Translations under genes and position numbers: made by a program
From: an uncultured bacterium
GTDB lineage: Bacteria > Cyanobacteriota > Vampirovibrionia > Gastranaerophilales > Gastranaerophilaceae
DNA length: 59,933 nucleotides
Direction of reading: 5' to 3'
Assembly: GCA_949296355.1 (NCBI GenBank)
Contig: CASFPS010000020.1
Span: forward strand, 1-59,933
Notes under the pieces: generated by a model
Database searches by the model: none
What the model was told of the DNA's origin: nothing
What the model saw: only the letters and a program-made list of their open reading frames with translations
Shown here: piece after piece, positions 32,213-48,261 of the stretch
Layout: each line of letters begins with the position of its first letter
Numbering within the stretch: the first letter of the stretch is position 1

Positions 32213-33565
32213 TTGTTCAACTATCGTTTTATAAGAAGAGTATTTTTAATATTGCTGATGCTTGCAGCTGTAACAATACAGTCATACGGGTTTGAAATAT
32301 ATTACCCGAAGGAAAAGAAATCAGAAACGACTTATGACTATGGTTTATTTATCGGAAAAGCCAGAAATACAGAGTTGATTTCAATTAATAATATAAATAT
32401 ACATACCGCGTCAAATGGCGCCTTTGCTCATTCTGTTAAACTTAAAGACGGAGAAAACAGAATTGTAATCCGCTCAAACTATAGTACAAAAGTATACAAT
32501 GTTTATAAGAAGAAGCCTGTAATTAAAGCAGCCGCGGAGATTAAGGAATTGGAAAAACGTACTCTTCTTGTAAAATCTGATAATACCCCATTGAGGAGGG
32601 CGCCAGAGGATATCGGGTATAATATTGTATCTTATCTGTTTAAAGATACAAGACTTGTTGTTAACGGAGAAAAAGGCATCTATTACAGAGTTTTTCTCTC
32701 TAAAGACAAAACTGCCTGGATATTAAAAAGTGATGTGGACGAAAATTCCTGTCCTGATACAGAGCCGGCAAGTTTTGTGAATATGGACAGCGAAAGATTC
32801 AAAAATGCAAATGTTCAGACAATAACTTTTACGAAAAATCTTCCTTATACAGTAGAGGACGGGGAAAAAGAAATTCTGTTCAGAGTGTACAATCCCGAAC
32901 TTTCAGACAATTCTGTTTATACTTTAAATATTTTAAAACCAAAAAAGTATTTTTATAACGTAACATTAAACGACGGTTTTTATACATTTAAAGTCAGCGA
33001 AGTTCCTAAGACATTTGAGGGCTGTACCATTGTTGTGGATGCAGGGCACGGAGGAGAGCAGGACGGGGCTGCAGGTTGCCTTGGGGATAAAGAAAAAGAC
33101 ATTAACCTGAAAATAGCGCTTGAACTCCAGCAGCTTTTGAAGCAAAGAGGAGCTAATGTCGTTATGACAAGGGAATGCGACGGAACAATTACGCTCAAAG
33201 ACCGGATAAAAATAGCAAAAGCCAGTGAAGCAAATATATATTTAAGTATTCACATGAATTCAATCGGAAATGTTGCTTTTAGCAGCATAAAACACCGCGG
33301 AACAGGGTTGTATTACTTTAACAGAAACTCAAGAGAACTTGCGGAAATTCTTGAAAAAACTATTTCAAAATCTGCAGGTACCAGAAGAGACGGCGTGAAG
33401 TCCAGAAGTTTTGCGGTAATCAGACCCGCAAATTATGTCGGCGTTCTTATAGAAACCGCTTTTATGATAAATCCTTCCGATACTTTGCTCTACCGCTCGC
33501 CTGAATTTGCTAAAAATGTTGCGGAAGGAATCGTTACAGGTCTGGAAGAATTTATTTGTGAATAA
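32213..33565 (+). CDS. Second N-acetylmuramoyl-L-alanine amidase, SH3-type N-domain
   Basis: A 450-residue secreted amidase. From TTG 32213 (GAGG ribosome site 6 bases upstream) it has a signal peptide (basic start, LILLMLAAVTIQSYGF), a beta-rich central region that includes an SH3-like domain (TPLRRAPEDIGYNIVSYL), and a C-terminal Amidase_3 domain with DAGHGG, DKEKD, SIHMNS and IETAF motifs. A longer frame to 32162 is also open but would lack a ribosome site. Probably peptidoglycan turnover, parallel to the 27840 enzyme. Confidence 0.88.
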   Translation: MFNYRFIRRVFLILLMLAAVTIQSYGFEIYYPKEKKSETTYDYGLFIGKARNTELISINNINIHTASNGAFAHSVKLKDGENRIVIRSNYSTKVYNVYKKKPVIKAAAEIKELEKRTLLVKSDNTPLRRAPEDIGYNIVSYLFKDTRLVVNGEKGIYYRVFLSKDKTAWILKSDVDENSCPDTEPASFVNMDSERFKNANVQTITFTKNLPYTVEDGEKEILFRVYNPELSDNSVYTLNILKPKKYFYNVTLNDGFYTFKVSEVPKTFEGCTIVVDAGHGGEQDGAAGCLGDKEKDINLKIALELQQLLKQRGANVVMTRECDGTITLKDRIKIAKASEANIYLSIHMNSIGNVAFSSIKHRGTGLYYFNRNSRELAEILEKTISKSAGTRRDGVKSRSFAVIRPANYVGVLIETAFMINPSDTLLYRSPEFAKNVAEGIVTGLEEFICE

Positions 33566-33577
33566 ACTATAACTCTT

Positions 33578-33700
33578 GTCATTGGGGGGGGTAAATGTAT
33601 TTTGGTCGGTAAGTTGGGACTACTAGCTCGATGTCATTGCTGGGTGGGATAAATGTATTTTGGCTGGTAAGTTGGAACTGCTAGCTTGACGTCATTGCGA
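33578..33700. repeat. Tandem ~56-bp repeat (two units and part of a third)
   Basis: Units start with GTCATTG at 33578, 33633 and 33691, share TAAATGTATTTTGG and GGTAAGTTGG, and end in CTAGCT. The same family occurs in reverse orientation at 37551-37727 and in diverged form near 49550 and 49940. Next to it is the GTTGGGTTTCACCCAACC palindrome (33750-33770). Confidence 0.75.
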
Positions 33701-33778
33701 GAAAATCTTTGATTTTCGCGGCAATCCGTTTAGTTATCGTTGGGTTTCACCCAACCTACATTTTATAACACATGTTGC

Positions 33779-33872
33779 GCCGCGAGCGTGTTATGCGTCA
33801 GCATAACAATAGCGAGCGAGAACCAGCAGGCTTTGCCTGCAACAGCCGTTCAGACAACGCTCGAAAGAGCGT
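33779..33872. repeat. Structured element of three hairpins
   Basis: Three perfect short hairpins in 83 bases: GTTATGC-gtca-GCATAAC (33790-33807), GCAGGC-ttt-GCCTGC (33826-33840), ACGCTC-gaaa-GAGCGT (33857-33872, GAAA tetraloop). The first is flanked by GCGAGCG direct repeats. G+C-rich against the A+T-rich surroundings. Could be a structured RNA or a mobile palindromic repeat. The stretch 33566-34004 has no other gene. Confidence 0.5.
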
Positions 33873-34004
33873 AGAAAACAATTGCGTGATTTCTCTTTCT
33901 TTTCGTCCTTTTGGGGTAAATTTATTTAGTCTGTAGGCACCACTACAAATTTGAAAGTTTCATAAAACTTTGTTTCGTAAATAAAGAGAAAGAAAAGGAC
34001 AATT

Positions 34005-34067
34005 ATGAAAAACTCTCAAGACTTGTTTTATTTATACATTTTTAAAATTTTAGTGTTAAAATGTTGA
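34005..34067 (+). CDS. Possible 20-residue leader peptide before dnaG
   Basis: An ATG at 34005 with AAAAGGAC just upstream opens 20 codons (MKNSQDLFYLYIFKILVLKC), hydrophobic in the middle. Its TGA ends one base before the dnaG ATG, so dnaG could be translated by coupling. Only the ribosome site and position support it. Confidence 0.3.
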   Translation: MKNSQDLFYLYIFKILVLKC

Positions 34068-34068
34068 T

Positions 34069-35949
34069 ATGGCAAATTCGTTTGAAGAAGTTATTTCTCA
34101 GATAAAAGACCGGCTGGATATAGTAGACGTTGTTTCACAATATGTGGTTTTGAAAAAGAGCGGAGCGAATTACTGGGGGTTGTGTCCGTTTCATAACGAC
34201 AAAAAACCTTCCATGTCAGTAAGCCCATCCCGCGGTATTTTTAAGTGCTTTTCCTGCGGGGAAGGCGGAGATGCCTTAAGTTTTCTTGTAAAAATCCAGA
34301 ATCGGGAGTATAAAGATGTTATACTTGAACTTGCCGAAAAATACGGAATCGAGCTTCCCAAAAAATATACGCCGTCGTCCGAGACTAAAGATTTAAAAAA
34401 AGATATGATAAAAGCTTGCACAAAAGCTGCAAAGTTTTATCATACACAATTAAGAAGTGCTGATGATGCAAATAAAGCAATGACTGCTCTTAGAGCGAGA
34501 AATGTCGATGACAGTGTAATAGACAGATTTACTTTGGGCTGGGCACCTAATAAGTATGATGTTTTGTATAAAGAATTGAAAAAAGAGTTTAAAGATGATG
34601 TTCTTGAAAAAGCGGGCTTAATTCTCAAATCCAATTCAGGCGGGTGGATTGACCGGTTCAGAAACAGAATAATTATTCCTATTCAAAATGAAAACGGAGA
34701 GTATGTCGCGTTTGGAGCACGCGCGGTTGATGAGGGGCAAAACCCTAAATATTTGAACTCTTCTGACTCTTTGATTTACAACAAAAGTAAAATCCTTTTC
34801 GGGCTTTATACCGCACAAGAAGCTATAAAAAACGAGGACGGAGTCCTTATTATGGAAGGGTATTTTGATGTAATCTCGGCTCAGGCACATGGCGTGGAAA
34901 ATGCTGTAGCTTCCTGCGGAACCGCTTTAACTGCAGAGCATGTTAAACTTCTTTCAAGGTATACAAAATCAAGAAGGATTTATCTCTCGTTTGATACGGA
35001 TAATGCAGGTATAAATGCCACAAAAAAAGGAAGTGCGGTTATAAAAGAAGCTCTGGCTGCTTTAGGTGATGTAAAACAGTTTGATGAAAGTCATATTTCA
35101 TCTGCCGCTGATAATAAATACGCCTGTGAAATCCGTGTAGTTTCACCTCCGCAGGGGAAAGACCCGGATGAATTTATAAGAACAACCGGAGGTGAGGCGT
35201 TCAAAGAATTTATTAAAAATGCCCCGCTTCTTATAGACTTTCTTCTAAATAATATTTTGAAAGAAAAAAATTCAGCAAAAACTCCTCAGGAAAAAGCGGT
35301 TCTTGTCGAACAGATAATAGAAATTTTAAAAGATGTTAATAATAAAATTATTCAATCTGAATATGTAAAGATGGTTTCATCGATTTTAAATGTTGATGAA
35401 AATGCCATGCTGAAAGAACTTCAGCGGCATGAAAATTTGAACCAATATATAGAGCGCCGGAACTTTAATAAAAAAGTTGTAACAAATTCTTCACAATTTG
35501 AAATAAAAGCGCAAAAAAATTTATTGAGCGTTTTTCTAGCAAGTGGCAATGTTCTAAGTTACCAACAGCTAAATGAACTATTACCCGAAAATATCATTCA
35601 AGATGAATCGTTAATAATTGTAAAAAATACAATTGACAAATTGTCGTGTACAATAAATAATGTTAAGGAATTGGTAAAAAGTTTGTATACAGAATTCATT
35701 GAGGATGATAATTTGACCCATATATTAACCGATATAGTCGAACTCTCGGAGTCATTTAACGGACTCGAACCGGATGAGTTTAAACGGGCTGTAGAGGAAA
35801 ATGTTGCAAGACTTAAAAGATGTTATCAGGAAAAAGAAGCCGAAATAATTCGCCGGCAGTACAAGCAGGTGAATGATAATGATATTGAAGCATTAAAGCT
35901 TCAAATGCAGCTTAGAGATAAGATAAAATTAAGGACTGGAGATAAATAA
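34069..35949 (+). CDS. dnaG: DNA primase
   Basis: A 626-residue primase: CHC2 zinc-binding domain ([10 protein letters not shown]...FKCFSCG at residues 40-65), catalytic TOPRIM core ([13 protein letters not shown] and [12 protein letters not shown]), and a C-terminal helicase-binding helical region. Makes RNA primers at replication forks. TAAAAT lies 6 bases before the ATG; alternatively the start is coupled to a short upstream frame. The stop overlaps the rpoD ATG by one base (TAATG): the classic dnaG-rpoD operon without rpsU. Confidence 0.96.
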
Positions 35950-37043
35950 TGACCCAAAAAAGAAATTCACATTCATCAGTTGTAAGCGTAGAAGATGAAA
36001 ATCTTGATTTATTGGATTTTGATGCTGACAAAGAAGATGATGATACTGTAGATTACATTGAAACTGATTTAGGGACAGATAATATTGAAGATATTATAAC
36101 TTCATCCAAACTCGGCGAGATGAAAAGTGATGATTTTTATATGATGGATTCATCCGACTCTTCAAGAGATTCAGACTTAGATACAGATGTTCCAAAAGGT
36201 GTTGCGGTAGAAGATCCGGTAAGACTTTATTTAAGAGAAATCGGACGTATTAAATTATTATCAACAAGTGAAGAGATTGAACTTGCCAGAAAAATTATTC
36301 AGGGCGGAACTCCGGGCGCTATTGCAAAACGTAAGCTGGTTCAGGCAAATTTGAGACTTGTTGTAAGTATTGCAAAAAAATACGTCGGAAGAGGCATGCT
36401 ATTTTTAGACCTTATTCAGGAAGGCAATTTAGGTTTAATAAGAGCAGCAGAAAAATTTGACCACGAAAGAGGGTTTAAATTTTCGACTTATGCAACCTGG
36501 TGGATAAGACAGGCTATTACAAGAGCAATTGCAGATCAGGCAAGAACAATCCGTATTCCGGTTCACATGGTAGAAACTATTAATAAATTGAAGAAAGTTA
36601 CCCGCCGCTTGGCTCAGGAACTTTCAAGAAAACCGACCGAAGAAGAATTGGCTTCAGAAATGGGAGTTTCAATTTCTAAATTGAGAGAAATTGTTAAAAT
36701 TGCGCAGGAGCCTTTGTCATTAGAAACTCCAATCGGTAAAGAAGAAGATTCAAGACTTGGTGATTTTATTGAAGATAAAGAAGCAGATGCTCCGATTAAG
36801 ACTGTAGCTTCAGAACTCTTGAGAGAAGACCTGGCAGAAGTTCTTTGTACATTATCTCCGAGAGAAAGAGATGTTCTGAGACTAAGATTCGGTATGGACG
36901 ACGGACGCCAGAGAACACTTGAAGAAGTTGGACAATTGTTCGGCGTAACAAGAGAACGTATCAGACAAATTGAAGCAAAAGCGTTAAGAAAATTGCGTCA
37001 TCCAAACAGAAGCAAACGCTTAAGAGAATATGTAGAAAACTAA
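35949..37043 (+). CDS. rpoD: Primary sigma factor (sigma-70/SigA)
   Basis: A 364-residue housekeeping sigma factor: acidic N-terminus (1-85), region 1.2 [11 protein letters not shown], region 2 with [14 protein letters not shown], region 3, and region 4.2 helix-turn-helix [18 protein letters not shown]. It directs RNA polymerase to TTGACA/TATAAT-type promoters, as seen across the window. Short like cyanobacterial SigA, lacking the long non-conserved region of E. coli RpoD. GGAGATAAATA before the ATG. Confidence 0.96.
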
Positions 37044-37048
37044 ATTTT

Positions 37049-37079
37049 AAAAAGACCGGATTTACAATCCGGTCTTTTT
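37049..37079 (+). terminator. Terminator of dnaG-rpoD
   Basis: AAAGACCGGATT / AATCCGGTCTTT stem with a TAC loop and a T-run, directly after the rpoD stop. Confidence 0.9.
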
Positions 37080-37130
37080 CGTTAAATATTTATAAAATTT
37101 TTTCTACTAAATCTTTCAGCAGAGACTTTA

Positions 37131-37410
37131 TTGCTTCTAATGTCCGCATGTTCCCCTCGCCCAATAAACGCGCCTACCTCCCAAGTTGGGGAGGTCGCAG
37201 TTGTGCGAACGCCAGTGAGCTACAAATGCGGGTGGGGTTCTGTCAAAGCTATTCCCCATCCGAACCTGCTTGAGCCGCCAGGCAAAATTTACGGATGTGG
37301 GAGTGGGCTGAAAAACTATTATTCCATACAACACCCCCCCCTACCCCCTTCGGGTACTTCCTCCGCAAGGGGGGGGCAGATGTGGCGGCGTTCGATTAGC
37401 GCATATTCAT
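37131..37410. repeat. G+C-rich repeat-derived spacer
   Basis: This 280-base part of the 37080-37849 spacer is clearly richer in G+C than the genes around it and holds short inverted motifs (CCTCCCAAGTTGGGGAGG at 37176-37193; CCCTTCGGG; CCCCCC and GGGGGG runs). Open frames in it translate into low-complexity Pro/Ser/Gly sequence and look non-coding. Origin unknown. Confidence 0.5.
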
Positions 37411-37427
37411 CACCCTTTAAAATTCTC

Positions 37428-37557
37428 GTCATTGCGAGGGAATAGCCATTCAACCCGAAGCAATCCCGAACGCATTACACAATTAAAAATGGTAGGTTGG
37501 GTGAAACCCAACAATAACAATATGGATTGCCGCGTCGCTCCCGCTCCTCGCAATGAC
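37428..37557. repeat. 130-bp MITE-like element with 12-bp inverted ends
   Basis: GTCATTGCGAGG (37428-37439) and CCTCGCAATGAC (37546-37557) are perfect inverted ends. Inside lies the GGTTGGGTGAAACCCAAC palindrome (37494-37511) and GGATTGCC sequences. Similar GTCATTGCGAG ends occur in many bacterial genomes as short mobile repeats. Confidence 0.7.
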
Positions 37558-37727
37558 ACCCAGCTGGTAAGCTTACCTACTAAACCAAACATTTACCCCC
37601 CGCAATGACGCTCAAGCTGGTAGTTCTACTTCCCAGCCCAAACATTTACCCCCGCAATGACGCCAAACTGGTAGTTCTACCTACCAACCAAAATACATTT
37701 ACCCCCGACGGCGCTCAAACTAGATGT
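37551..37727. repeat. Tandem ~52-bp repeat, three units
   Basis: CAATGAC recurs at 37551, 37603 and 37655 with a 52-base period; each unit carries a CTGGTA-type segment and TTTACCCCC. This is the reverse-complement orientation of the 33578 array. Confidence 0.75.
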
Positions 37728-37849
37728 TTTCACTTGTCTCTTTGGAAGAGAGAGTATAAAACAGAATTTTTACAAAACATAACATTTTATTGGATTTTTA
37801 GAATGTTTAAAATATAATAACTTAGGTAAACCTATGAGGGAGTATAAAA

Positions 37850-38446
37850 ATGCCTAATAACGAAAGTGTTGGAAAGAAAATTGTAGAAGCTTTGAAAAAG
37901 CAAGCTGAAAGTATGGATATGCAAGATAATCAGGATATGAGTTTTGATTCTGTTCCTGTTAGTAACCCGATGAAGGAGGATATTTTTGCTTCTTCACCTT
38001 CTGATGATATTTTTGCAGAACCTGTTAAACCTAAAAAGAGTACAAATTTCTTTGATGATATAACAGAAGATAAAGATCCGTTTTTTGAAGAGGCAAAGCC
38101 GGTTCAGGCACCGATTTCCGAAACTATGAGCGAATCTTTTGAAATGCCTGCAAATATTACAGTTTTGAAAAAGCTTATTTCCCAGCTTCCGAGCGGTGTT
38201 TCAAGACACACGGGGGCGCAGATTATTAAGCAGACAATGGAGGCTCTTGGAATTTCAATGAAGAGTGTACTTCAAGATGCACAGCAGGTTCAGGAAAATC
38301 TGAAAGTTTCTGCAAGAGAATGTCAGGCATCTATTCAGGAATACAAAAAACAGATTCTGGCACTGGAAAAACAATCGCAAAGCTACCAGAAACAGTATTC
38401 AGCATTGAATGATTTGATAAGTCTGTTTATTCAAACAACAAAATAG
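37850..38446 (+). CDS. Unknown coiled-coil protein
   Basis: A 198-residue acidic protein. Residues 1-95 are disordered and Asp/Pro-rich; residues 100-190 form a helical, Gln-rich coiled coil after a segment ITVLKKLISQLPSGVSRHTGAQIIKQTMEALGI cut into helices. No signal peptide or membrane part. No family is recognised; a cytoskeletal or division-linked scaffold is possible. GAGGGAG precedes the ATG; its own terminator follows. Confidence 0.7.
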   Translation: MPNNESVGKKIVEALKKQAESMDMQDNQDMSFDSVPVSNPMKEDIFASSPSDDIFAEPVKPKKSTNFFDDITEDKDPFFEEAKPVQAPISETMSESFEMPANITVLKKLISQLPSGVSRHTGAQIIKQTMEALGISMKSVLQDAQQVQENLKVSARECQASIQEYKKQILALEKQSQSYQKQYSALNDLISLFIQTTK

Positions 38447-38460
38447 AAAATATTAAAATT

Positions 38461-38498
38461 AAAAGCCGGAGATTGATGTGTTGTCGTCTCCGGCTTTT
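38461..38498 (+). terminator. Terminator after the coiled-coil gene
   Basis: AAAAGCCGGAGA / TCTCCGGCTTTT stem with a 14-base loop, ending 20 bases before the mtnA start; the mtnA ribosome site (GGAGAG) lies just past it. Confidence 0.75.
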
Positions 38499-38517
38499 GT
38501 TAACCGGAGAGATTAAA

Positions 38518-39573
38518 ATGGAATTTAAGTCAAAAATAAAAACAATAGAGTGGGTTGATAATTATTCAAAGATGGTTGACCAGACGGTTATACCTTATGA
38601 ATATAAGTTTGTTAATATAACATCAGGCGATGAAATGTTTGCTGCTATCAGAAATATGATAGTAAGAGGCGCGCCGGCAATAGGAATTGCAGGGGCTCAC
38701 GGTGTAATTCTTTTTGCTCAGGAACTTGAAAAACAGGGGCTTACCCGGGACGAGTTTGTCAAAAAACTTATTGAAAAAGCTGAATATATGAAAACTTCCC
38801 GTCCTACTGCAGTCAATCTTATGTGGGCGTGCGAAAAACAAATTGAGGTTATAAGAAATTCAAAATCCGATATTTCAGGGATTATAGAGGAGTTAAAAGC
38901 AAACGGGATAAGACTTGAGGATGAGGATATTGAAATCAATAAGAAAATTGGTGATTATGGCGCAGAAGTTGTTCCAAAAGGCGCAACGATACTTACTCAC
39001 TGTAATGCCGGTGCTCTGGCAACTGTAGGTTACGGAACCGCTCTCGGGGTAGTGCGTTCGGCTTATGCAAAAGACAGCACGATTCAGGTTTTTGCGGACG
39101 AAACCCGTCCGCGCCAGCAGGGGGCAAGAATTACTACTTTTGAACTTGCTATGGACGGTATTCCTGTAACGCTTATTACTGACGGAATGTGTTCTTATTT
39201 TATGAAAAAAGGCATGATAGATATGGTTGTTGTTGGCGCGGACAGAATTGCAGCCAATGGTGATACTGCTAACAAAATCGGAACGTATACTGTAGCGATT
39301 GCCGCAAAATACCACAATATTCCGTTTTATATTGCTGCTCCGCTTTCTACTATTGATATTTCAATTAAATCTGGCGATGAAATTCCTATAGAAGAGCGTT
39401 CGCACGAGGAAGTTACTCATATCAACGGAAAACCAATCTGCCCTCTTAAAGGAGTAAATATCATAAATCCGGGATTTGACGTCACCCCGCACGAGTTAAT
39501 TACCGGTATAATTACTGAAAAAGGAATTTTAAGACCTGATTATGAAAAATCTATAAAACAAGTTTTTGTATAA
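38518..39573 (+). CDS. mtnA: S-methyl-5-thioribose-1-phosphate isomerase
   Basis: A 351-residue enzyme of methionine salvage or dead-end 5'-deoxynucleoside recycling (methylthioribose-1-P to methylthioribulose-1-P). Family marks: IVRGAPAIGIAGAHG near residue 45, LTHCNAGALATVGYGTALGVV with the catalytic Cys, and the catalytic Asp in VVVGADRIAANGDTANKIGTY. GGAGAG precedes the ATG; an upstream in-frame ATG at 38473 lies inside the terminator. No other salvage genes are adjacent. Confidence 0.95.
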   Translation: MEFKSKIKTIEWVDNYSKMVDQTVIPYEYKFVNITSGDEMFAAIRNMIVRGAPAIGIAGAHGVILFAQELEKQGLTRDEFVKKLIEKAEYMKTSRPTAVNLMWACEKQIEVIRNSKSDISGIIEELKANGIRLEDEDIEINKKIGDYGAEVVPKGATILTHCNAGALATVGYGTALGVVRSAYAKDSTIQVFADETRPRQQGARITTFELAMDGIPVTLITDGMCSYFMKKGMIDMVVVGADRIAANGDTANKIGTYTVAIAAKYHNIPFYIAAPLSTIDISIKSGDEIPIEERSHEEVTHINGKPICPLKGVNIINPGFDVTPHELITGIITEKGILRPDYEKSIKQVFV

Positions 39574-39606
39574 AAAAACTTCCGGTATTTTAACCGGAAG
39601 TTTTTC
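39573..39606. terminator. Bidirectional terminator between mtnA and the heptad-repeat gene
   Basis: AACTTCCGGT / ACCGGAAGTT stem with A- and T-runs on both sides; it serves both convergent genes. Confidence 0.85.
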
Positions 39607-39619
39607 TTATACAGAGGTT

Positions 39620-42391
39620 TTATTCTTCTTTTTTAGCATCAGCATCAGCTTTTTCAAATTCTCCGGTTTCAACGTTGTATTCATATTTTATTCCGTCTTT
39701 TTCAACAATGAATGGATAGTTTGTTAAGTCTGATTCTGAATATGTGAATCCTTCATTTTGCATTTTCAGCATTGCCTCAGCTCGAATTGCATCAGGATCA
39801 TCCCTGTTTATGGCTTTTCCGTCCGGAGTGAAGTCTGCATCCGTATCTTCTGCACTTTCTGCCTGCACAAAAGAATTAAATTCTTGAGCGACAGGATCCC
39901 AGATATAAAGATATGTGCCCATAGGAGTACTTTGAGTGTAAGCACCCGTCATATCAGTACTGCTTAAACCTTGTGCTGCAGCTGCTTCATCCGGAGAAAC
40001 AGGAGCTTCTTCAGTTTTTTCCGGAATTAATTCTTCTGCAAGATTATCAAGCTCTTTGTTCAGGTTAGCAATGATATCATCTTCATTCTGGTATTCTTTC
40101 AATTCGACTTTTAAGCCTTCAATGTCGCCTTCAAAAGGAGTACCATCTTCGTTAGTATAGACTTCATTGCCATCCTGATCTGTATTTTTATAGACACGAT
40201 TGCCGTCAGCATCTGTATAAGCTGCACCATTTTCATCTACTACAGGGAAGCCCATTACAGCACTTAAGTCCTCATCAGTACCTTCGTATGCCGTACCGTC
40301 TTGATATGCATAGCTGATATTGCCTTCTTCATCAACATTTTGGAATACATAGTTGCTGTCTGCATCCTTAAACATTAATCGACCTTCAGCATCACTCATT
40401 TGCTGTAAATCAGAAGGTTTTACTTCTGCCATTTCAGCACTGGTTTCGTTAGCTCCGCTGATTATATCTTTTACAGTAGAATCAAGATCATATACTGCCA
40501 GCTGTAATTTCTCAAGCTTTGTAAGTTCTTCGCCGTTTTCAGCTTTTTCTTTTAATGCTTCATATTCTTCAGCGCTGATTCGGTAATCTGAGCTTCCATC
40601 CCATTCAAATATAGCTTTTAAACCATCAAGCAGCATATCTCTGCGTGCCATTACCTGCTCATACACACGCATTTGAAATTCATTCATCTGCTCAACATAA
40701 TCATTATCATGGACCATACTGTTATTGCTATTATCGGATTGGTCAGTATTATTGTAAGAGCCCTCTATGTTATTAGAACCCGTCGTTGTGTTGTTTGAAT
40801 CCGTTGTAGTCGTTGTATTATTTGAATCAGTATAGTTATTGGTTACGTCGTTTGTTGTTGTATTACCGGAGTTATTGCCGTCTCCATTTGTATTTCCTGT
40901 TCCGTTTCCGGTGTTTCCGTCACCGGTTGTGTTATTATTGCCGGCATTTGCTAATTGTTCTTTTAATGCTTCAATCTCAGCTTTTAATGCTTCAACTTCA
41001 TCTGTATCTTCTGTTTCTTCCGGCGCAATACCTGTATTACCGACAATTAAACCTTTTAACTCTTCTATCTGAGCTTTTAAGTCGTCGATTTCATCACGTA
41101 ATTCCTGATTTTCTTCTTCTACAGGAGTTCTTAGAGCGTTAGCATTGTCAGCTGCTTCTTGAGACTTTTCAGCTGCTTTTTTTGCTTCTTCGGCATCAGC
41201 AAGTGCTTTTTCGGCATTAGCTTTTGCTTGTTCAGCCATATCTAAGGCAAATTGTGATTCTTCAACTTGTGCTGCTAATTCTTGAACTTTAGCGGAAGCT
41301 TCTTGAACTTCCTGAGCAAGTTTTTCGGCTTCTTCTGCAGCCTTGGCGGCTTTTTCAGCAGTGTCATTTGCTTTTTGAATAGCATCTTCTTTGTTCTTTT
41401 GTGCAGTTTCCATGTCTGCCTGAGCTTTTTCAAAAGCGGCATTTGCTTCTTCAAGCTTAGCCTGGGCCTCTTCAAGTTTAGCTTGTGCTTCTTCAAGAGC
41501 CGCTTTCTTCTCTTCAAGTATTGCTTGTTTTTCTTCAAGAATAGCCTGTTTAGCTTCCAGATCAGCCTGTTTAGCCTCTAAATCAGCCTGTTTAGCTTCT
41601 AAATTTGCTTGTTTTTCTTTAAGAACAGCCTGTTTTTCTGCTAATACAGCTTCTTTTTCTGCCAGTTTAGCTTGTGCTTCTTGAAGTTTAGCTTGTGCTT
41701 CTTCAAGAGCTTGTTTGGCTGTCGCGTATGCAGGGTTTGGTACAGATCTGGTTCCGGTCTTTTTATTTCCTTCGGAGTCTACATAAGTGTATGTTTCTGT
41801 TATAGTCTCGGGTGTATTGTTTAAAGTTGCTTGAGCAGCATCAACTTCTGCCTGCGCACTGTTAACTTCTCCTTGAGCAGCATCAACTTCTGCCTGCGCA
41901 GCGTCAACTTCTCCTTGTGCGGTATCAACTTCTCCTTGTGCGGTTGTAACCTCATTTTGCGCAGTCTCAACCTCTCCTTGAGCGGTTTCTACATCACTTT
42001 GAGCAGTGTCGACATCTGCCTGTGCAGTATCAACTTCTCCTTGCGCTGTATCAACTTCTCCTTGTGCGGTTTCGACTTCTGTTTCAGCTTCTGCTCTTGC
42101 CGTTTCAGCTTCAGCTTTTGCAGTTTCTGCTGCATCATAATCTGCTTGTGCCTGTGTTGCTGCGGCTTCGGCATTCAGTGCATCCTGGGCATAAGTTTGA
42201 GCTTCTGTTTTGATTTGATTCACCTGTGCTGTTAAGTCAGCAACTCTTTCTGTTGCTTCTAATACAGCCTGCTCATCTTCTGTAAGTTTTAACTCACCAT
42301 CAACAGCATCGTCTGTCTTAGCCTTTACTTCTTTTGACCAGTACTCAATCAAGCAGTCATAATTGGTATAATTGTTACCGTCTATCTTCAT
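39620..42391 (-). CDS. Giant heptad-repeat coiled-coil protein
   Basis: A 923-residue acidic protein. Residues 60-450 are a nearly unbroken coiled coil; AQGEVDT-type heptads (about 100-185) and LEAKQAD-type heptads (about 240-320) are repeated almost exactly, as 21-bp DNA repeats. An Asn/Thr/Gly-rich linker follows (about 475-555), then a globular part with repeated DxDGNxVYxN motifs (about 690-770), like short beta-hairpin repeats. There is no signal peptide, so it may be a cytoplasmic scaffold or leave by an unusual route. No family is recognised. The N-terminus MKIDGNNYTNYDCLIEYW is Asn-rich like other short-leader proteins here. Ribosome site GGAGAG. Confidence 0.75.
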   Translation of the reverse strand: MKIDGNNYTNYDCLIEYWSKEVKAKTDDAVDGELKLTEDEQAVLEATERVADLTAQVNQIKTEAQTYAQDALNAEAAATQAQADYDAAETAKAEAETARAEAETEVETAQGEVDTAQGEVDTAQADVDTAQSDVETAQGEVETAQNEVTTAQGEVDTAQGEVDAAQAEVDAAQGEVNSAQAEVDAAQATLNNTPETITETYTYVDSEGNKKTGTRSVPNPAYATAKQALEEAQAKLQEAQAKLAEKEAVLAEKQAVLKEKQANLEAKQADLEAKQADLEAKQAILEEKQAILEEKKAALEEAQAKLEEAQAKLEEANAAFEKAQADMETAQKNKEDAIQKANDTAEKAAKAAEEAEKLAQEVQEASAKVQELAAQVEESQFALDMAEQAKANAEKALADAEEAKKAAEKSQEAADNANALRTPVEEENQELRDEIDDLKAQIEELKGLIVGNTGIAPEETEDTDEVEALKAEIEALKEQLANAGNNNTTGDGNTGNGTGNTNGDGNNSGNTTTNDVTNNYTDSNNTTTTTDSNNTTTGSNNIEGSYNNTDQSDNSNNSMVHDNDYVEQMNEFQMRVYEQVMARRDMLLDGLKAIFEWDGSSDYRISAEEYEALKEKAENGEELTKLEKLQLAVYDLDSTVKDIISGANETSAEMAEVKPSDLQQMSDAEGRLMFKDADSNYVFQNVDEEGNISYAYQDGTAYEGTDEDLSAVMGFPVVDENGAAYTDADGNRVYKNTDQDGNEVYTNEDGTPFEGDIEGLKVELKEYQNEDDIIANLNKELDNLAEELIPEKTEEAPVSPDEAAAAQGLSSTDMTGAYTQSTPMGTYLYIWDPVAQEFNSFVQAESAEDTDADFTPDGKAINRDDPDAIRAEAMLKMQNEGFTYSESDLTNYPFIVEKDGIKYEYNVETGEFEKADADAKKEE
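41455..42085. repeat. In-frame 21-bp minisatellite inside the coiled-coil gene
   Basis: Two blocks of tandem 21-base units: 41870-42085 (encoding AQxEVxx heptads) and 41455-41700 (LEAKQAx / LEEAQAK heptads). Units differ by a few bases, so unit number could vary between strains by slippage without changing frame. Confidence 0.7.
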
Positions 42392-42520
42392 TAAGACTCT
42401 CCTTTCTATTCTGCCATTCTGCTATTCTGTACAAAAACAATATAAATTTTATAACGGCATTTTTAGTTAAAACTTTAATGAAAATAGGACAATTGTTACA
42501 AATTTTTACAATAAAAATTT

Positions 42521-42553
42521 CAAAACTCTGCCGAAATTCAGTGCAGAGTTTTG
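42521..42553 (-). terminator. Terminator of the ssb-kinase-pdxA operon
   Basis: On the minus strand CAAAACTCTGC pairs with GCAGAGTTTTG, followed by AAATTTTTATT. It lies 47 bases past the pdxA stop. Confidence 0.75.
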
Positions 42554-42599
42554 TTTTAAAGACTAATATTATTGTAAAGAAATATTAATAAATTTTACT

Positions 42600-43535
42600 T
42601 TAATACAGGCAGTATTTAATTGCTTCAATCATTGATTCCGGGTTTGCAATATTTTTTCCTGCAATATCAAATGCAGTGCCGTGTCCTGGGGAAGTCCTTA
42701 TAATATCAAGACCTATAGTCATATTGACTGTTTTTTTGGAAGCTATTGCCTTAATAGGGATTAAGCCCTGATCGTGATAGCAGGCAATATAGCAGTCGTA
42801 AGGGATTTTCTCTTCTTTAATATAATTCTGTACTGCTTTTACAAACAATGTGTCTGCAGGAAGCGGGTTTGTAATATTTATCCCTCTTTTTCTGACTGCT
42901 TCTATTGCAGGAAGAATTTTTTCTTCCTCTTCTCTTCCGATAAGCCCGTTTTCTCCGGCATGAGGGTTAAGTGAACAAAGAGCAAAAGAAGGCTTTTTTA
43001 TCATTAATTTATTCTGGAAAAAGCTTCTCAGGCGCTCTGTTTTTTCAATAATCAATTCTTTTGTAATCAAGCCGCTGACTTCTTTTAACGGAACATGTCT
43101 GGTTAAAAGAAGGATGCGAAAATCTTTTGAAACAAAAAGCATTTCAGCTTTTTGCCCGTCATGTGCGAGGAATTTTTCAAGAATTTCCGTCTGACCCGTA
43201 TAATTATGTCCCGCAAGGTTCATTGCCTCTTTTGATGTAGGCGCTGTAACAATAAATTTAGGCTTTAATTCGCAAGCCTTTTGAAGAGCGCGGAAAGCAA
43301 AATCGCCTGCTGAAGCTGAAACCTCACCCGGAACTATTTTTGCTGGATTATCAATTTCAATAACTTCATATTTATTATTTATACTTCCGTAAGTGTTTAG
43401 AATTTTAGAATTAGAAATAATAACTATGTCTTTAGACGGCAAATTAAGCAAATTCAACGCTTTTATTGTAATTTCTGCGCCGATTCCGTTCGGATCTCCC
43501 GTAGTTATAACAATTTTATTTTCATAATTATTCAT
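42600..43535 (-). CDS. pdxA: PdxA-family 4-phospho-acid dehydrogenase
   Basis: A 311-residue PdxA-family NAD-dependent dehydrogenase: TTGDPNGIGAEI at the N-terminus, TAPTSKEAMN, the metal-site GHNYTGQTE, and CYHDQGLIPIK and TSPGHGTAFDIAG near the C-terminus. Classic PdxA oxidises 4-phosphohydroxy-threonine in vitamin B6 synthesis. Here it overlaps by 8 bp a four-carbon acid sugar kinase gene, the pairing typical of PdxA2 and D-threonate/D-erythronate catabolism, so the substrate may be a 4-phospho-threonate instead. No other pdx gene is in the window. Confidence 0.88.
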   Translation of the reverse strand: MNNYENKIVITTGDPNGIGAEITIKALNLLNLPSKDIVIISNSKILNTYGSINNKYEVIEIDNPAKIVPGEVSASAGDFAFRALQKACELKPKFIVTAPTSKEAMNLAGHNYTGQTEILEKFLAHDGQKAEMLFVSKDFRILLLTRHVPLKEVSGLITKELIIEKTERLRSFFQNKLMIKKPSFALCSLNPHAGENGLIGREEEEKILPAIEAVRKRGINITNPLPADTLFVKAVQNYIKEEKIPYDCYIACYHDQGLIPIKAIASKKTVNMTIGLDIIRTSPGHGTAFDIAGKNIANPESMIEAIKYCLY

Positions 43536-44832
43536 GGTGCTTAAAATAATCTAAAATTTCTATTAAAGTTCTTGTATTTCCCAGATTTCCTGATTTTGTA
43601 ACAATCCATCTTCCTTTAACGTCCTGACAGAGTGAAATTGCAGGAGCAACTTCATCTACAAGCTTTAATTCATGGGAATTTATAGTTCTGCAGCATTTAT
43701 AAGAAGTTTCTCCGCCCAGAGTAATCAGTATGGCGTTAATTTGTCCGAGAACTTTTCCGGTAAGTTCTGCAAGATAGTCGGTTATCATTGAAGATAATTT
43801 CTCTTTTGTTAACTCTGCATTAAAGGAATCATCTGAAAAGCCGTCAAAATTAGCAATAAGGTTAGAAGTATGAACCGTAACCGTAACTCCGCTTTTTAGG
43901 TTTGTAACAATTCTTTCTACTATATCATCATCAACACCATCAAGAATATCAGCAACTTCCAGCGGTATAAAATTAACGTTTTCATAATCGTCAGATTGTT
44001 CCAGTTTTGTAATCTGTTCGGCTGTTATGTTTGTAGCGGTTCCTGACACAATAAATTTAGGAAGTTTTTCCAGCTTAATCGGCTCCCGGGTTCTTTCTAT
44101 CCCTGCAAGCCAGCATTTGCCGAGAACCTGAGCGCCTGCTGCCGTTCCGGCAGGAAGAAGTTTTTTGTCACATTTTTTTATTGCAAGCGCAAGCTGCTCT
44201 ATATCTGTAATAGATGTAGAATCAGCAATTATAAGTTTTTTGCCTTCTTTAATCAACTCATTAATTTTGATTAAAATAGGTCCGGCGCCGTTCATAATCG
44301 TCTTTAAATCAATAGTTCCGACTAAATCTTTTTCCTTTTCTTCAAGCTGCGAGCGCAAAAGTGTCGGTATATGAGATTCCAGAATAGGAGAGTGCGGATC
44401 CATGGCAATCTCTGTTCTGCCGATTGGAACTCCTTTTTGAAGGTGATAACCGCCGACTGTTATTCTTCCCTCCTGCGGGAATGCCGGAATAATTATTGCG
44501 GCGTCGTAACTTAGAATATTGAGCATGGCAAGTGTTTCGCGTGCAATGTTGCCTCGAAGAGTTGAGTCAATTTTTTTGTAATAATATTCAAAAGAAAAAT
44601 TGTCAACAAATGATTTGACAGCAGCTTCCACTTTTTCAACCGCTTCATTGCAGGCAATATTTCTTGATTCCGTAGAAATTGCCCATACTTCGGTATCCCC
44701 TTTATTTATGGGAATATATTCACTGTCCAGCAAAATTTTTGTATTTGCTCCGCGCAGGTGAAACTGAAGTGCAGTATCGTTTGCACCGGTTAAGTCATCT
44801 GCAATTATTCCAACTATGTCTGAAAATATCAT
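43528..44832 (-). CDS. Four-carbon acid sugar kinase (DUF1537 family)
   Basis: A 434-residue kinase of the DtnK/OtnK family: the N-terminal substrate domain has IADDLTGANDTALQF (residues 9-24), and the C-terminal nucleotide domain ends with IVTKSGNLGNTRTL. Known members phosphorylate D-threonate, D-erythronate or 3-oxo-tetronate at O4. Overlaps ssb upstream (4 bp) and pdxA downstream (8 bp), so all three are one transcript. Confidence 0.9.
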   Translation of the reverse strand: MIFSDIVGIIADDLTGANDTALQFHLRGANTKILLDSEYIPINKGDTEVWAISTESRNIACNEAVEKVEAAVKSFVDNFSFEYYYKKIDSTLRGNIARETLAMLNILSYDAAIIIPAFPQEGRITVGGYHLQKGVPIGRTEIAMDPHSPILESHIPTLLRSQLEEKEKDLVGTIDLKTIMNGAGPILIKINELIKEGKKLIIADSTSITDIEQLALAIKKCDKKLLPAGTAAGAQVLGKCWLAGIERTREPIKLEKLPKFIVSGTATNITAEQITKLEQSDDYENVNFIPLEVADILDGVDDDIVERIVTNLKSGVTVTVHTSNLIANFDGFSDDSFNAELTKEKLSSMITDYLAELTGKVLGQINAILITLGGETSYKCCRTINSHELKLVDEVAPAISLCQDVKGRWIVTKSGNLGNTRTLIEILDYFKHHE

Positions 44833-45306: not shown

Positions 45307-48261
45307 GTGATATTAAGTGTTAATTCTGCGGACAGAGTCTTTTGCTTAAAGCCGGTTGTTAAAAAGTCAGACAATAAGAACAACAATGCTCTTATTACAA
45401 CAAGTGATAACAATGATATTAAAGGTGTTCCGAGAAGTTATATTACCTTTAAACAAAAAGAGGAAAGTAAAATTAATTTTACAGAAGATGCGGAACATCT
45501 GCTAAATGGTGCCCGTGAAGTTGCAATGCGGTATCACCATACGGAAATATTGCCGCAGCACATAATACAGGCGTCTATAGAGGAGACACGGAATAATATA
45601 GAAGCTTTAGGAGAAGAAACTCTGGATACGGGCGCATTTGCTAGTGTTTCTGTATTAAGCCGCCTTGCTAATGATTATGCGAAGGTCAATCTGCTTTCTA
45701 CAAGTGAAAACAGACAATTTTTAAATTTAATGCTTTATGATTTGGAAGTGAGCAACAAGGAATCTTTAAATAATATTCATGCAGATGCTGAAGGTTCTGT
45801 TGATGAACTTAATCTCTCGACACCGTTGGAAAAGAAGCTGCAAGAATTGGAAAAAAATATGCATTCTGTTAATGCTTATGTACTTCTCGGTACGGCAATG
45901 AATACGCTTACTGCAGAGAATATTCTGTATCCGACGGAATTCCTCGGGAGTTTAATCAGTTTTTCGGCATATAAAAGTTCAGAAAATGTAAATAAGAATT
46001 ATATTAAAGCTTACGATAATAAAGCTATAGAGGTGTGGAACAAGCTTGCTCTGGGCTCTAACATGATAGTAACATACAGTGACTCAAAAGAAGCAGACAG
46101 AATTACTGCGAGTATTCTTAAAACAATAAATCGTCCGAAATACGGTAACTTCAATGATAAAAATACGGTTATGTATGTAATGGCGGATGATATAACTGAT
46201 GTTAGCATGCTTCAGGAACTTACAGATTTAAAAGAATCATTGCCGGACGTTCGTAAGATTGTAATGGCAAATTTTGATAACCTGCTTATAAATTCCGGCA
46301 ATAAAGATGAACTTGAGACCTTTAATAATCTTGCCGGCATTGTTAGAAGTTCTGATGAGAATTTAAAACTTATTCTTTTCCAGAAGGATAATGTTTATTA
46401 CAAGTTAAAGTCAGAGCCTGCTATGGAGGCGGTATATAAGAATACGGTTACTTATGCAATTCCGCAGATTCAAACTTATGAAGCGCGTGCAATGCTGAAT
46501 AAGAATATGCTTAAGGATGTCAAAACTCCGTTTACAAAAGAGGCTAAGGACAGAGCAGTTTTCCATGCCGCAAATTTAGACGGGATTTTTCCGGATAAAG
46601 CGGTTGATTTGATGAAAAGAATTGCAAACTATTATGGTAATTCAAAAAAGAAAATTACTGCCGCTGATGTTGATGAATTTGCGCAAATCGGATACGAGTT
46701 GTTTAAAAATAAATCAGACCAGTCTAAAATTGTCTATGACACGGGAAAAACTCTGGAGTCTTTATATGGAAAAGAGACGACCAAAAAAGATATTGAAGCT
46801 ATAATAAGACAAATCAAAACCGGCAAAATCGGAACAAGAGGTATAATTATTTCATCAAAGGATAATGAAGCCGGTTCAGGCAGAAAATACACAGCGGAAA
46901 CTATAGCGGGAGAAGCCAAAGTTCCGTTTATTGCAATAGATACAGCGGATTTTGCTCTGTCGAAAAGGGATTCTTCCGGTGTGACATTAGATTCTCCGAA
47001 AAATCAAATGAGCAGAATTTTTGCCGAGGCAAAGAATGCGGCAAGGCAGAATCAGTATAAAACAGCGATAATTTATGTGAATAATTTTGAAGAATTTGCC
47101 TTTTCAAATCCGTATTTACCAGGATATAAACAGGCAATGTCCCAGCTTGCTAATGAAATGCAGGATGCTGAGCATGAGGATATAAGTATTCTGGTTATTG
47201 CTTCTACTGATGAAGATTATGCGCAATATATTCCTAAATTCGTCAGAGGTTTTAATCAATCTTTGTCGGTTGATTCTCCTGCATTTAATAAGAGAGGAAG
47301 AAAAGAAATTCTTGAGCATCGGATAAATGAAGTAGGCTTACCGCTTTCATATAAGACATTAAAAGACAAAGAACATTTGATTGAGCGACTGGTTAAACTT
47401 ACTGAATATATGTCTTTTGTAGAAATAAAATCTCTTGTGGATAAGACTAGTCAGATTATGTATGAGAGGAATAAGCAAAAAGCTTCTATCGGCGAGTTTA
47501 TAGAAGCGTATTTGCAGCTTGTAACGGGAAGAACTTCACGTCCGGAGACACCGGAGTATAACAAACAGCTAACTACTTCTCACGAGTGCGGACATGCAAC
47601 AAACCTGGAAGTTATGAATGATATTTTAAAACGCAAAGGACAGCCATGGCATCAGTTCAGGAATGTTAATTTTATAACATTAGACCCTAGAGGAGATTTC
47701 TTGGGTGCGGTATTTGAGGACAGCTCCGATAATACAACATTTCCTTTTGAGGCTCTGTTTACTGCGCTAGTATGCTCATATGGCGGTTACTCCAGTGAAA
47801 AATTCTTCTTTAATATTAACGGTTCTGCCGGAATTTCACAGGATCTGGCACAGGCAACCGCTGCTGCAAAACGGGGTATAGAATACTTCGGTTTCGGGCA
47901 TAATACCGGAAAAATCTCTAATGCAGTGAAGATTCAGTCTCCAACATTTTATGAAAAAGTTTATAAGGATTTAGATATTATACTTGAAAATGCAAAATCT
48001 GCTTCTGATTTGATTACAGAAACATTTAAGTCGTTTAATGAGTGGTTTACGAATAAATATTCAAAACTCATAGGTTCAAACGATTGTATGGTTGACGGTG
48101 ATGAATTCAGACGTTCACTCCAAAACTGGAGGAAATCTCTCAGTGCTGATAAGAAAGAAGAAATTAATATTCTGGAAGATATGATTATGGATATTATTGA
48201 CTCTTCCAAAAAAGGGATTAAATACGGACAGCTTAAAGCAATAAAAAAAGCGGTAAAATAA
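45307..48261 (+). CDS. ClpN / degenerate AAA / M41 metalloprotease fusion
   Basis: A 984-residue protein. Residues 55-190 resemble a Clp N-terminal repeat domain (FTEDAEHLLNGAREVAMRYHH then ILPQHI). Two AAA-like regions follow (about 230-480 and 490-740). In the second, the Walker A site is EAGSGRKYT (521-529) rather than GPPGTGKT, and the Walker B position is IIYVNN (588-593), without the Asp-Glu pair, so ATP hydrolysis is unlikely. The C-terminus is an FtsH-type M41 zinc protease: HECGH at 759-763, third ligand Asp846 in ISQDLAQAT, preceded by GGYSSEKFFF. No membrane segment is present, unlike FtsH. The start is GTG after AAGGAG. The N-terminus has the polar leader ending ITFKQKE. Function unknown; regulated or chaperone-like proteolysis is inferred. 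Confidence 0.75.
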   Translation: MILSVNSADRVFCLKPVVKKSDNKNNNALITTSDNNDIKGVPRSYITFKQKEESKINFTEDAEHLLNGAREVAMRYHHTEILPQHIIQASIEETRNNIEALGEETLDTGAFASVSVLSRLANDYAKVNLLSTSENRQFLNLMLYDLEVSNKESLNNIHADAEGSVDELNLSTPLEKKLQELEKNMHSVNAYVLLGTAMNTLTAENILYPTEFLGSLISFSAYKSSENVNKNYIKAYDNKAIEVWNKLALGSNMIVTYSDSKEADRITASILKTINRPKYGNFNDKNTVMYVMADDITDVSMLQELTDLKESLPDVRKIVMANFDNLLINSGNKDELETFNNLAGIVRSSDENLKLILFQKDNVYYKLKSEPAMEAVYKNTVTYAIPQIQTYEARAMLNKNMLKDVKTPFTKEAKDRAVFHAANLDGIFPDKAVDLMKRIANYYGNSKKKITAADVDEFAQIGYELFKNKSDQSKIVYDTGKTLESLYGKETTKKDIEAIIRQIKTGKIGTRGIIISSKDNEAGSGRKYTAETIAGEAKVPFIAIDTADFALSKRDSSGVTLDSPKNQMSRIFAEAKNAARQNQYKTAIIYVNNFEEFAFSNPYLPGYKQAMSQLANEMQDAEHEDISILVIASTDEDYAQYIPKFVRGFNQSLSVDSPAFNKRGRKEILEHRINEVGLPLSYKTLKDKEHLIERLVKLTEYMSFVEIKSLVDKTSQIMYERNKQKASIGEFIEAYLQLVTGRTSRPETPEYNKQLTTSHECGHATNLEVMNDILKRKGQPWHQFRNVNFITLDPRGDFLGAVFEDSSDNTTFPFEALFTALVCSYGGYSSEKFFFNINGSAGISQDLAQATAAAKRGIEYFGFGHNTGKISNAVKIQSPTFYEKVYKDLDIILENAKSASDLITETFKSFNEWFTNKYSKLIGSNDCMVDGDEFRRSLQNWRKSLSADKKEEINILEDMIMDIIDSSKKGIKYGQLKAIKKAVK

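What the first reader, a model, noticed from the sequence alone, without database searches (positions are those of the whole stretch)
39620..42391. 923-residue heptad-repeat protein with in-frame 21-bp minisatellite
Almost perfect heptads, an Asn/Thr-rich linker and DxDGNxVY repeats without a signal peptide. Such a protein could be a filament-forming scaffold or a surface fibre leaving by a non-Sec route; repeat number is likely to vary.
Basis: partly seen in the sequence, partly recalled or inferred. Interest (0 to 1): 0.5.

Follow-up and report, generated by a model that had tools for sequence, protein, structure and literature searches.

The report
Gut bacterium's flagellum-coregulated hairpin stalk protein
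A gut relative of cyanobacteria carries a long helical-hairpin protein whose gene sits behind a flagellum-type (sigma-28) promoter; it is probably one of a set of leaderless proteins sent out through a flagellum-like export machine, which would matter because these gut bacteria seem to keep a second such machine of unknown purpose.

Summary
In detail: a 923-aa ORF, on the minus strand, has heptad repeats, an Asn/Thr linker, DxDGN repeats and no signal peptide. The organism is a Candidatus Gastranaerophilales bacterium. The heptads form two equal arms that AlphaFold2 folds into one antiparallel hairpin (helices 38-192 and 220-375) with a beta-hairpin tip. Orthologues change length by the same whole heptads in both arms (-28/-28 and +21/+21), so the hairpin is well supported. 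The 21-bp units are too diverged for a minisatellite. Upstream lies TAAAGTTT-N11-GCCGTTAT, the recalled sigma-28 consensus, kept within 2 mismatches in 16 of 18 family members. The motif recurs 17-52 times per genome in the genus (reversed controls 0-6), in G000 mostly before leaderless proteins and one flagellin. The DxDGN module also lies in FlgL. The genomes carry two flagellum-type export sets; one relative without flagellins keeps the second set and the motif. Best reading: a sigma-28-regulon surface stalk exported by a type III route. Promoter and hairpin are strongly supported; export is inferred, and the route and the reading sigma factor are open. Filament formation is not supported.

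The parts
39620..42391 (-). ORF of 923 aa (P0001), leaderless hairpin stalk protein
42451..42477 (-). sigma-28-type promoter: -35 TAAAGTTT at 42470-42477, N11, -10 GCCGTTAT at 42451-42458; 59 nt from the start codon
   Evidence: conserved in 16 of 18 family members at up to 2 mismatches
42399..42404 (-). ribosome binding site AAGGAG
   Evidence: read from the upstream sequence
42290..42391 (-). residues 1-34, disordered N-terminus, possible export signal (inferred)
   Evidence: pLDDT under 50; no Sec signal; composition test negative
41816..42280 (-). residues 38-192, first arm of the hairpin (heptads V-D/E-T-A-Q-G-E)
41726..41812 (-). residues 194-222, conserved beta-hairpin tip
41267..41725 (-). 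residues 223-375, second arm of the hairpin
40940..41254 (-). residues 380-484, further helices
   Evidence: lower confidence
40706..40939 (-). residues 485-562, Asn/Thr-rich disordered linker
40427..40705 (-). residues 563-655, helical domain shared with 950-1060 aa relatives
40082..40411 (-). residues 661-770, DxDGN beta repeats, module shared with FlgL
39638..39979 (-). residues 805-918, C-terminal beta domain shared with one further G000 protein (C26)

Best explanation
The gene encodes a leaderless stalk protein of a Candidatus Gastranaerophilales bacterium that belongs to a sigma-28-type (late flagellar class) regulon. Residues 38-375 form one antiparallel helical hairpin of about 155 residues per arm (about 23 nm at 1.5 Angstrom per residue) ending in a small conserved beta hairpin. 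The C-terminal half carries a helical domain, DxDGN beta repeats that also occur in the hook-filament junction protein FlgL, and a further beta domain. It is probably exported unfolded through a flagellum-type type III channel, the flagellum's own or the second set found in these genomes, and folds outside as a stalk that holds its tip away from its anchor. Shown by computation: promoter match, regulon, hairpin, shared module, export machinery. Inferred: export, route, surface location, binding by the tip.
For: Promoter: perfect sigma-28-type site 59 nt before the start, at most 2 mismatches in 16 of 18 family members, 0 of 300 shuffles as good for those 16; 31 sites against 8 reversed controls in the genome, 17-52 against 0-6 across the 34 same-genus genomes; E. 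coli fliC and fliD as positive control; one flagellin with a perfect site. Hairpin: AlphaFold2 and equal whole-heptad changes in both arms, -28/-28 and +21/+21. No signal peptide in P0001 or in the 17 regulon proteins read; regulon proteins poorer in Cys and more acidic than 25 window proteins. DxDGN module in FlgL. Two flagellum-type export sets.
Against: Export was not shown. The N-terminal composition of the regulon proteins does not differ significantly in Ser/Thr/Asn from controls (p 0.08 for G000, 0.27 for G046). The regulon includes a GAF-HD-GYP protein that should be cytoplasmic, so membership does not prove export. Five flagellins have readable starts and four of them lack the motif. 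The C26 paralogue and the L181 orthologue lack a good 11-spacer site. No anchor or ligand was found; the C-terminal fold matches nothing clearly.
Confidence: 0.5

Rival explanations
1. It is a cytoplasmic protein of the flagellar regulon, for example a polar organiser or motor-associated scaffold, in which the hairpin is an intracellular spacer.
For: sigma-28 regulons also hold cytoplasmic proteins, and this one includes a GAF-HD-GYP protein; long antiparallel hairpins are common in cytoplasmic machines (MukB, Smc5/6 and Rad50 chains are in the Foldseek list); no compositional export signal.
Against: The DxDGN module is shared with FlgL; low Cys (1 in 923) and acidic composition like the other leaderless regulon proteins; distribution is patchy (11 of 34 same-genus genomes have a long relative), unlike a core scaffold.
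Confidence: 0.25
2. It is a substrate of the second, flagellum-derived export set rather than of the flagellum, perhaps an effector or adhesin directed at a host or neighbour cell.
For: The second set is complete (FlhA, FlhB, FliF, FliP, FliH, FliE and rod-like proteins), ancient, and kept with the motif in G046, which has no flagellin; a FliA-like sigma gene follows its FlhB.
Against: G046 has no P0001 match. Canonical FliA of G000 fits the motif better than the linked sigma by its promoter-reading helices (my reading). The 1047-aa relative lies near the flagellar flhB and flhA on C4. The second set occurs also in families without motif excess.
Confidence: 0.2
3. It is a filament-forming coiled-coil scaffold with a variable minisatellite.
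For: Heptads are very regular in the first arm and 21-bp periodicity is present.
Against: A conserved non-helical tip splits the heptads into two equal arms that the model pairs antiparallel and that change length together; the units are diverged.
Confidence: 0.05

Closest known systems
PrgA and polymer-adhesin stalk proteins of Gram-positive bacteria (top PDB fold match 6z9l, E 5.3e-5, TM 0.28)
   Same: A helix before and a helix after a distal element pair into a stalk (PMC7726212, passages seen).
   Different: No LPxTG anchor and no Sec signal, no Pfam family match, much smaller tip; fold match covers helices mainly; no sequence kinship found.
FlgL, hook-filament junction protein of the same bacteria
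   Same: Shares the DxDGN module of about 50 residues.
   Different: P0001 has no Flagellin_N or Flagellin_C domain.
Non-flagellar proteins exported by the flagellar type III route and co-regulated with sigma-28 (for example Cia and FspA of Campylobacter, recalled)
   Same: Leaderless, sigma-28-type promoter.
   Different: No sequence relation tested; export not shown here.
950-1060 aa coiled-coil/GLUG relatives in the same genus
   Same: Same promoter, leaderless, helical domain and DxDGN module.
   Different: A middle region with weak GLUG-motif matches in three of the proteins scanned in place of the hairpin tip, linker and C-terminal domain.

Membership tests
sigma-28 (FliA-type) regulon | TAAAGTTT-N11-GCCGATAA-like promoter at a transcription-competent distance | tested here: met
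   perfect match to the genus form 59 nt upstream; conserved in 16 of 18 relatives; E. coli control
sigma-28 (FliA-type) regulon | transcription depends on FliA | not testable with these tools
   needs in vitro transcription or a mutant; three FliA-like factors present
flagellin / flagellar axial protein | Flagellin_N and Flagellin_C helical ends | tested here: not met
   no such Pfam match up to E 1
type III translocator (SipB/IpaB kind) | hydrophobic transmembrane helices | tested here: not met
   best 19-residue hydropathy mean 0.55
FliK/YscP length-control protein | Flg_hook / T3S4 domain | tested here: not met
   no such Pfam match up to E 1; structure-based test not made
type III secretion substrate | N-terminal export signal, export by a type III system | tested here: inconclusive
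   no Sec signal, disordered N-terminus, but composition not significantly different
PrgA / polymer-adhesin stalk protein | stalk made of paired helices flanking a distal element | tested here: met
   model and paired arm lengths; a predicted likeness of architecture only
PrgA / polymer-adhesin stalk protein | polymer adhesin domain, Sec signal and LPxTG wall anchor | tested here: not met
   no Pfam match, no signal, no LPxTG in the printed sequence

The most novel reading that the evidence does not exclude
Gastranaerophilales keep an ancient second flagellum-derived export machine, conserved across the order and kept by a member without flagellins, which sends out a sigma-28-type-regulated set of some twenty leaderless proteins, among them modular hairpin stalks such as this one. 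What was described as incomplete flagellar gene sets in some of these gut bacteria would then be a working secretion system.
Probability: 0.3. Interest if true: 0.85.

Novelty: new variant of a known kind. Interest (0 to 1): 0.55.

Why it matters
Gastranaerophilales are gut bacteria known mostly from assembled genomes. A readable regulon of leaderless, domain-rich proteins tied to a flagellum-type promoter gives a short list of proteins through which they may touch their host or neighbours. The second export set bears on an older inference: Soo et al. 2014 (PMC4040986, passages seen) read incomplete flagellar gene sets in some members as loss of functional flagella. The G046 data suggest that in at least one lineage such a subset is a separate, conserved machine. 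The hairpin is also a clean case of the two arms of a stalk changing by the same whole heptads.

Tried and rejected
Sigma-70 promoter and terminator scans were no better than shuffles. Rfam found nothing at 33000-43600. Pfam gave only sub-threshold, mostly coiled-coil matches for P0001. A PDB sequence search with the C-terminal profile gave one chance-level hit (E 0.12, a designed protein). The C-terminal model (pLDDT 82, pTM 0.52) had no Foldseek match at E up to 0.001 (best 0.062, an Rhs core) and no VIA-align Z of 8 or more (best 7.4, dynamin); its fold is unplaced, which does not show that it is new. A filament was rejected on the paired arms, a minisatellite on unit divergence. My first idea, that the sigma gene beside the second FlhB reads the motif, was demoted after the alignment with E. 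coli FliA. The N-terminal composition test did not support an export signal. With one mismatch my degenerate pattern missed E. coli fliC and fliD; the canonical form with three allowed found both at two mismatches. In one search, 8 of 25 sites had no ORF by my rule; those and the doubtful L083 row (TTG start, 99 aa) were dropped. One search used 16 G000 proteins (L091 not included). In one search the landmark patterns failed for L178, L180 and L181 (tip start mis-set) and were replaced. In one search the G019 start was set some bases early, so its distance is approximate.

Full report
WHAT IS THERE. The ORF at 39620-42391 is on the minus strand and encodes 923 aa from an ATG. It lies between an mtnA-like and a pdxA-like gene (names by inspection of the translations). 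The genome (G000, 2.09 Mb, 99% complete) is a Candidatus Gastranaerophilales bacterium by its nearest named relatives: the five genome-contig loci found with the C-terminal profile are labelled Gastranaerophilales or Melainabacteria, the closest 69% identical. No Pfam family passes its cut-off.

HEPTADS ARE A HAIRPIN. Heptads run from about residue 45 to 440, interrupted by a conserved non-helical stretch (residues 194-222). AlphaFold2 on six orthologues gives helix 38-192, a beta hairpin at 196-218 and helix 220-375, with block pLDDT 85-96 over most of both arms; overall pLDDT is 74 and pTM 0.35, so the relative placement of domains is not meaningful. Independent of the model, arm lengths change together. 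From fixed landmarks, P0001 and its G002 orthologue have 135 and 107 residues in the first arm and 158 and 130 in the second, 28 fewer in each. L179 against L178, L180 and L181 has 193 against 172 in the first arm and 202 against 181 in the second, 21 more in each. Both are whole heptads. That is what an antiparallel hairpin with a fixed tip requires and what a parallel filament does not.

NOT A MINISATELLITE. The 21-bp periodicity is real, but units differ at many positions (mean 65% DNA identity, highest pair 90%). The repeats are kept at the protein level and vary in number between species. Strain variation could not be tested.

REST OF THE PROTEIN. Residues 485-562 are an Asn/Thr-rich disordered linker, absent from the more distant orthologue aligned. 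Residues 563-655 are helical and shared with 950-1060 aa relatives; residues 661-770 are DxDGN beta repeats; residues 805-918 form a beta domain shared with one further G000 protein on C26. A search with P0001 in 57 genomes gave matches in 14. Long relatives occur in 11 of the 34 same-genus genomes (counted from the rows; G001 and G023 match through a FlgL-length ORF only). FlgL of G000 itself matches the DxDGN module (E 3.7e-9; two-sequence E 4e-7). In the G003 FlgL the match lies between the Flagellin_N and Flagellin_C domains (position worked out), the part that faces outwards by general knowledge of FlgL.

PROMOTER. Printing upstream regions showed TAAAGTTT-N11-GCCGTTAT before P0001 and most of its family. 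That is close to the sigma-28 (FliA) consensus as I recall it (TAAAGTTT-N11-GCCGATAA); E. coli fliC and fliD carry the latter with two mismatches at the right place, and 0 of 200 shuffles had two such sites. Of 18 family members, 16 have the site with at most two mismatches 31-62 nt before the start, with 0 of 300 shuffles as good; L181 (which fits better with a 12-nt spacer) and the C26 paralogue do not. In the window the site before P0001 is the only perfect one; one two-mismatch site lies elsewhere.

REGULON. G000 has 31 sites at up to two mismatches, against 8 for the reversed pattern. With a degenerate pattern and one mismatch, the 34 same-genus genomes have 17-52 sites against 0-6 controls. 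Family f6 (four genomes) has 8-16 against 1-4. The 18 other order members, with 0-8 sites, show no clear excess, and the class outgroup has 0 against 6. Of 25 G000 sites read (the window site apart), 17 have an ORF of at least 60 aa with a ribosome site within 130 nt. They include LysM and EF-hand proteins, coiled-coil proteins, a GAF-HD-GYP protein and an MgtE_N protein. None has a signal-like N-terminus (highest score 1.70, against 2.22 and 3.08 for two Sec-type proteins). Seventeen regulon proteins, P0001 included, are poorer in Cys (0.66 against 1.08%, p 0.014) and more acidic (p 0.0001) than 25 window proteins. One G000 flagellin has a perfect site, four others do not, and for the sixth I found no start.

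EXPORT MACHINERY. Flagellin_N matches occur in 55 of 57 genomes and FHIPEP (FlhA) in 56 of 57. Most genomes show two full-length FlhA types plus a third protein with the FlhA cytoplasmic part only. Nine FlhA of the first type and eleven of the second form two clades with 100/100 support: 36-40% identity between types, 65-89% within the first and 70-96% within the second. FlhB and FliF are double in G000, G020, G033 and G043 and single in G046; FliP is double in G000, G020, G043 and G039 and single in G046. G046, 87% complete, has no flagellin and only the second FlhA type plus the third fragment among the listed matches; its FlhA lies next to FliF, FliE, FliH and rod-like genes (FliH by position and the G000 match). 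G046 keeps 16 motif sites against 1 control, two of them before genes orthologous to G000 regulon genes (59% and 30% identical). G046 has no P0001 match.

WHICH SIGMA. G000 has a canonical FliA (37% identical to E. coli FliA; 231 bits to the FliA/WhiG model) and two shorter FliA-like factors, one directly after the second FlhB. The promoter-reading helices of the canonical factor resemble E. coli FliA; those of the linked factor do not (alignment, my reading). FliA is thus the likelier reader, but why the regulon persists in G046 then depends on whether G046 keeps FliA, which I could not test.

FUNCTION. The most economical account is a stalk made late in the flagellar programme, exported without a Sec signal and folded outside. 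The architecture resembles stalked Gram-positive adhesins, in which helices on either side of a distal domain pair into a stalk (PMC7726212, passages seen; Foldseek top hit PrgA, E 5.3e-5, TM 0.28). No sequence kinship was found. Export, anchor and ligand are inferred. The GAF-HD-GYP member and the negative composition test stand against reading regulon membership as export.

LITERATURE. 'Gastranaerophilales' with 'type III secretion' gave two papers, seen as a listing only. 'Melainabacteria' with 'type III secretion' and 'flagellar' gave two, of which PMC7203096 was seen in passages (nothing relevant in the part held) and the other as a listing only. (listings) named no second export system in this order. 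The claim that it is not in print extends no further than these searches of the held library. Soo et al. 2014 (PMC4040986, passages) report complete flagellar sets in three of nine genomes and only subsets in the rest. PMC5877343 (passages) reports flagellar genes in a termite-gut member.

Noticed in passing
G000:C7:59313-61128 (L170:7305-9132) and G046:C12:42784-44516: A short, divergent FliA-like sigma factor gene lies directly after the second FlhB gene in both genomes and is found in most order members.
   Followed up: partly
G000:C15:28647-29699 (L129:6615-8087): A 490-aa protein with only the cytoplasmic part of FlhA (FHIPEP positions 321-655), with similar proteins in most order genomes; no membrane part, function unknown.
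   Followed up: no
G046:C22:80183-90381 (L167:2183-12381): Compact cluster of rod-like FlgB/FlgC/FlgF/FlgG-type proteins, a lytic transglycosylase, FliE, FliF, a FliH-position protein and the second FlhA in a genome without flagellin.
   Followed up: partly
window 45307-48261 (+): A 984-aa protein that by inspection combines a ClpA-like N-terminus, AAA modules and an FtsH-like zinc protease end without an evident membrane helix; not scanned.
   Followed up: no
window 33583-33698 and 37549-37707: Intergenic tandem repeats of 58- and 53-bp units with related sequence on either side of dnaG-rpoD.
   Followed up: no
G043:C11:11930-16014: Both full-length FlhA genes lie next to each other on opposite strands, tail to tail.
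   Followed up: no
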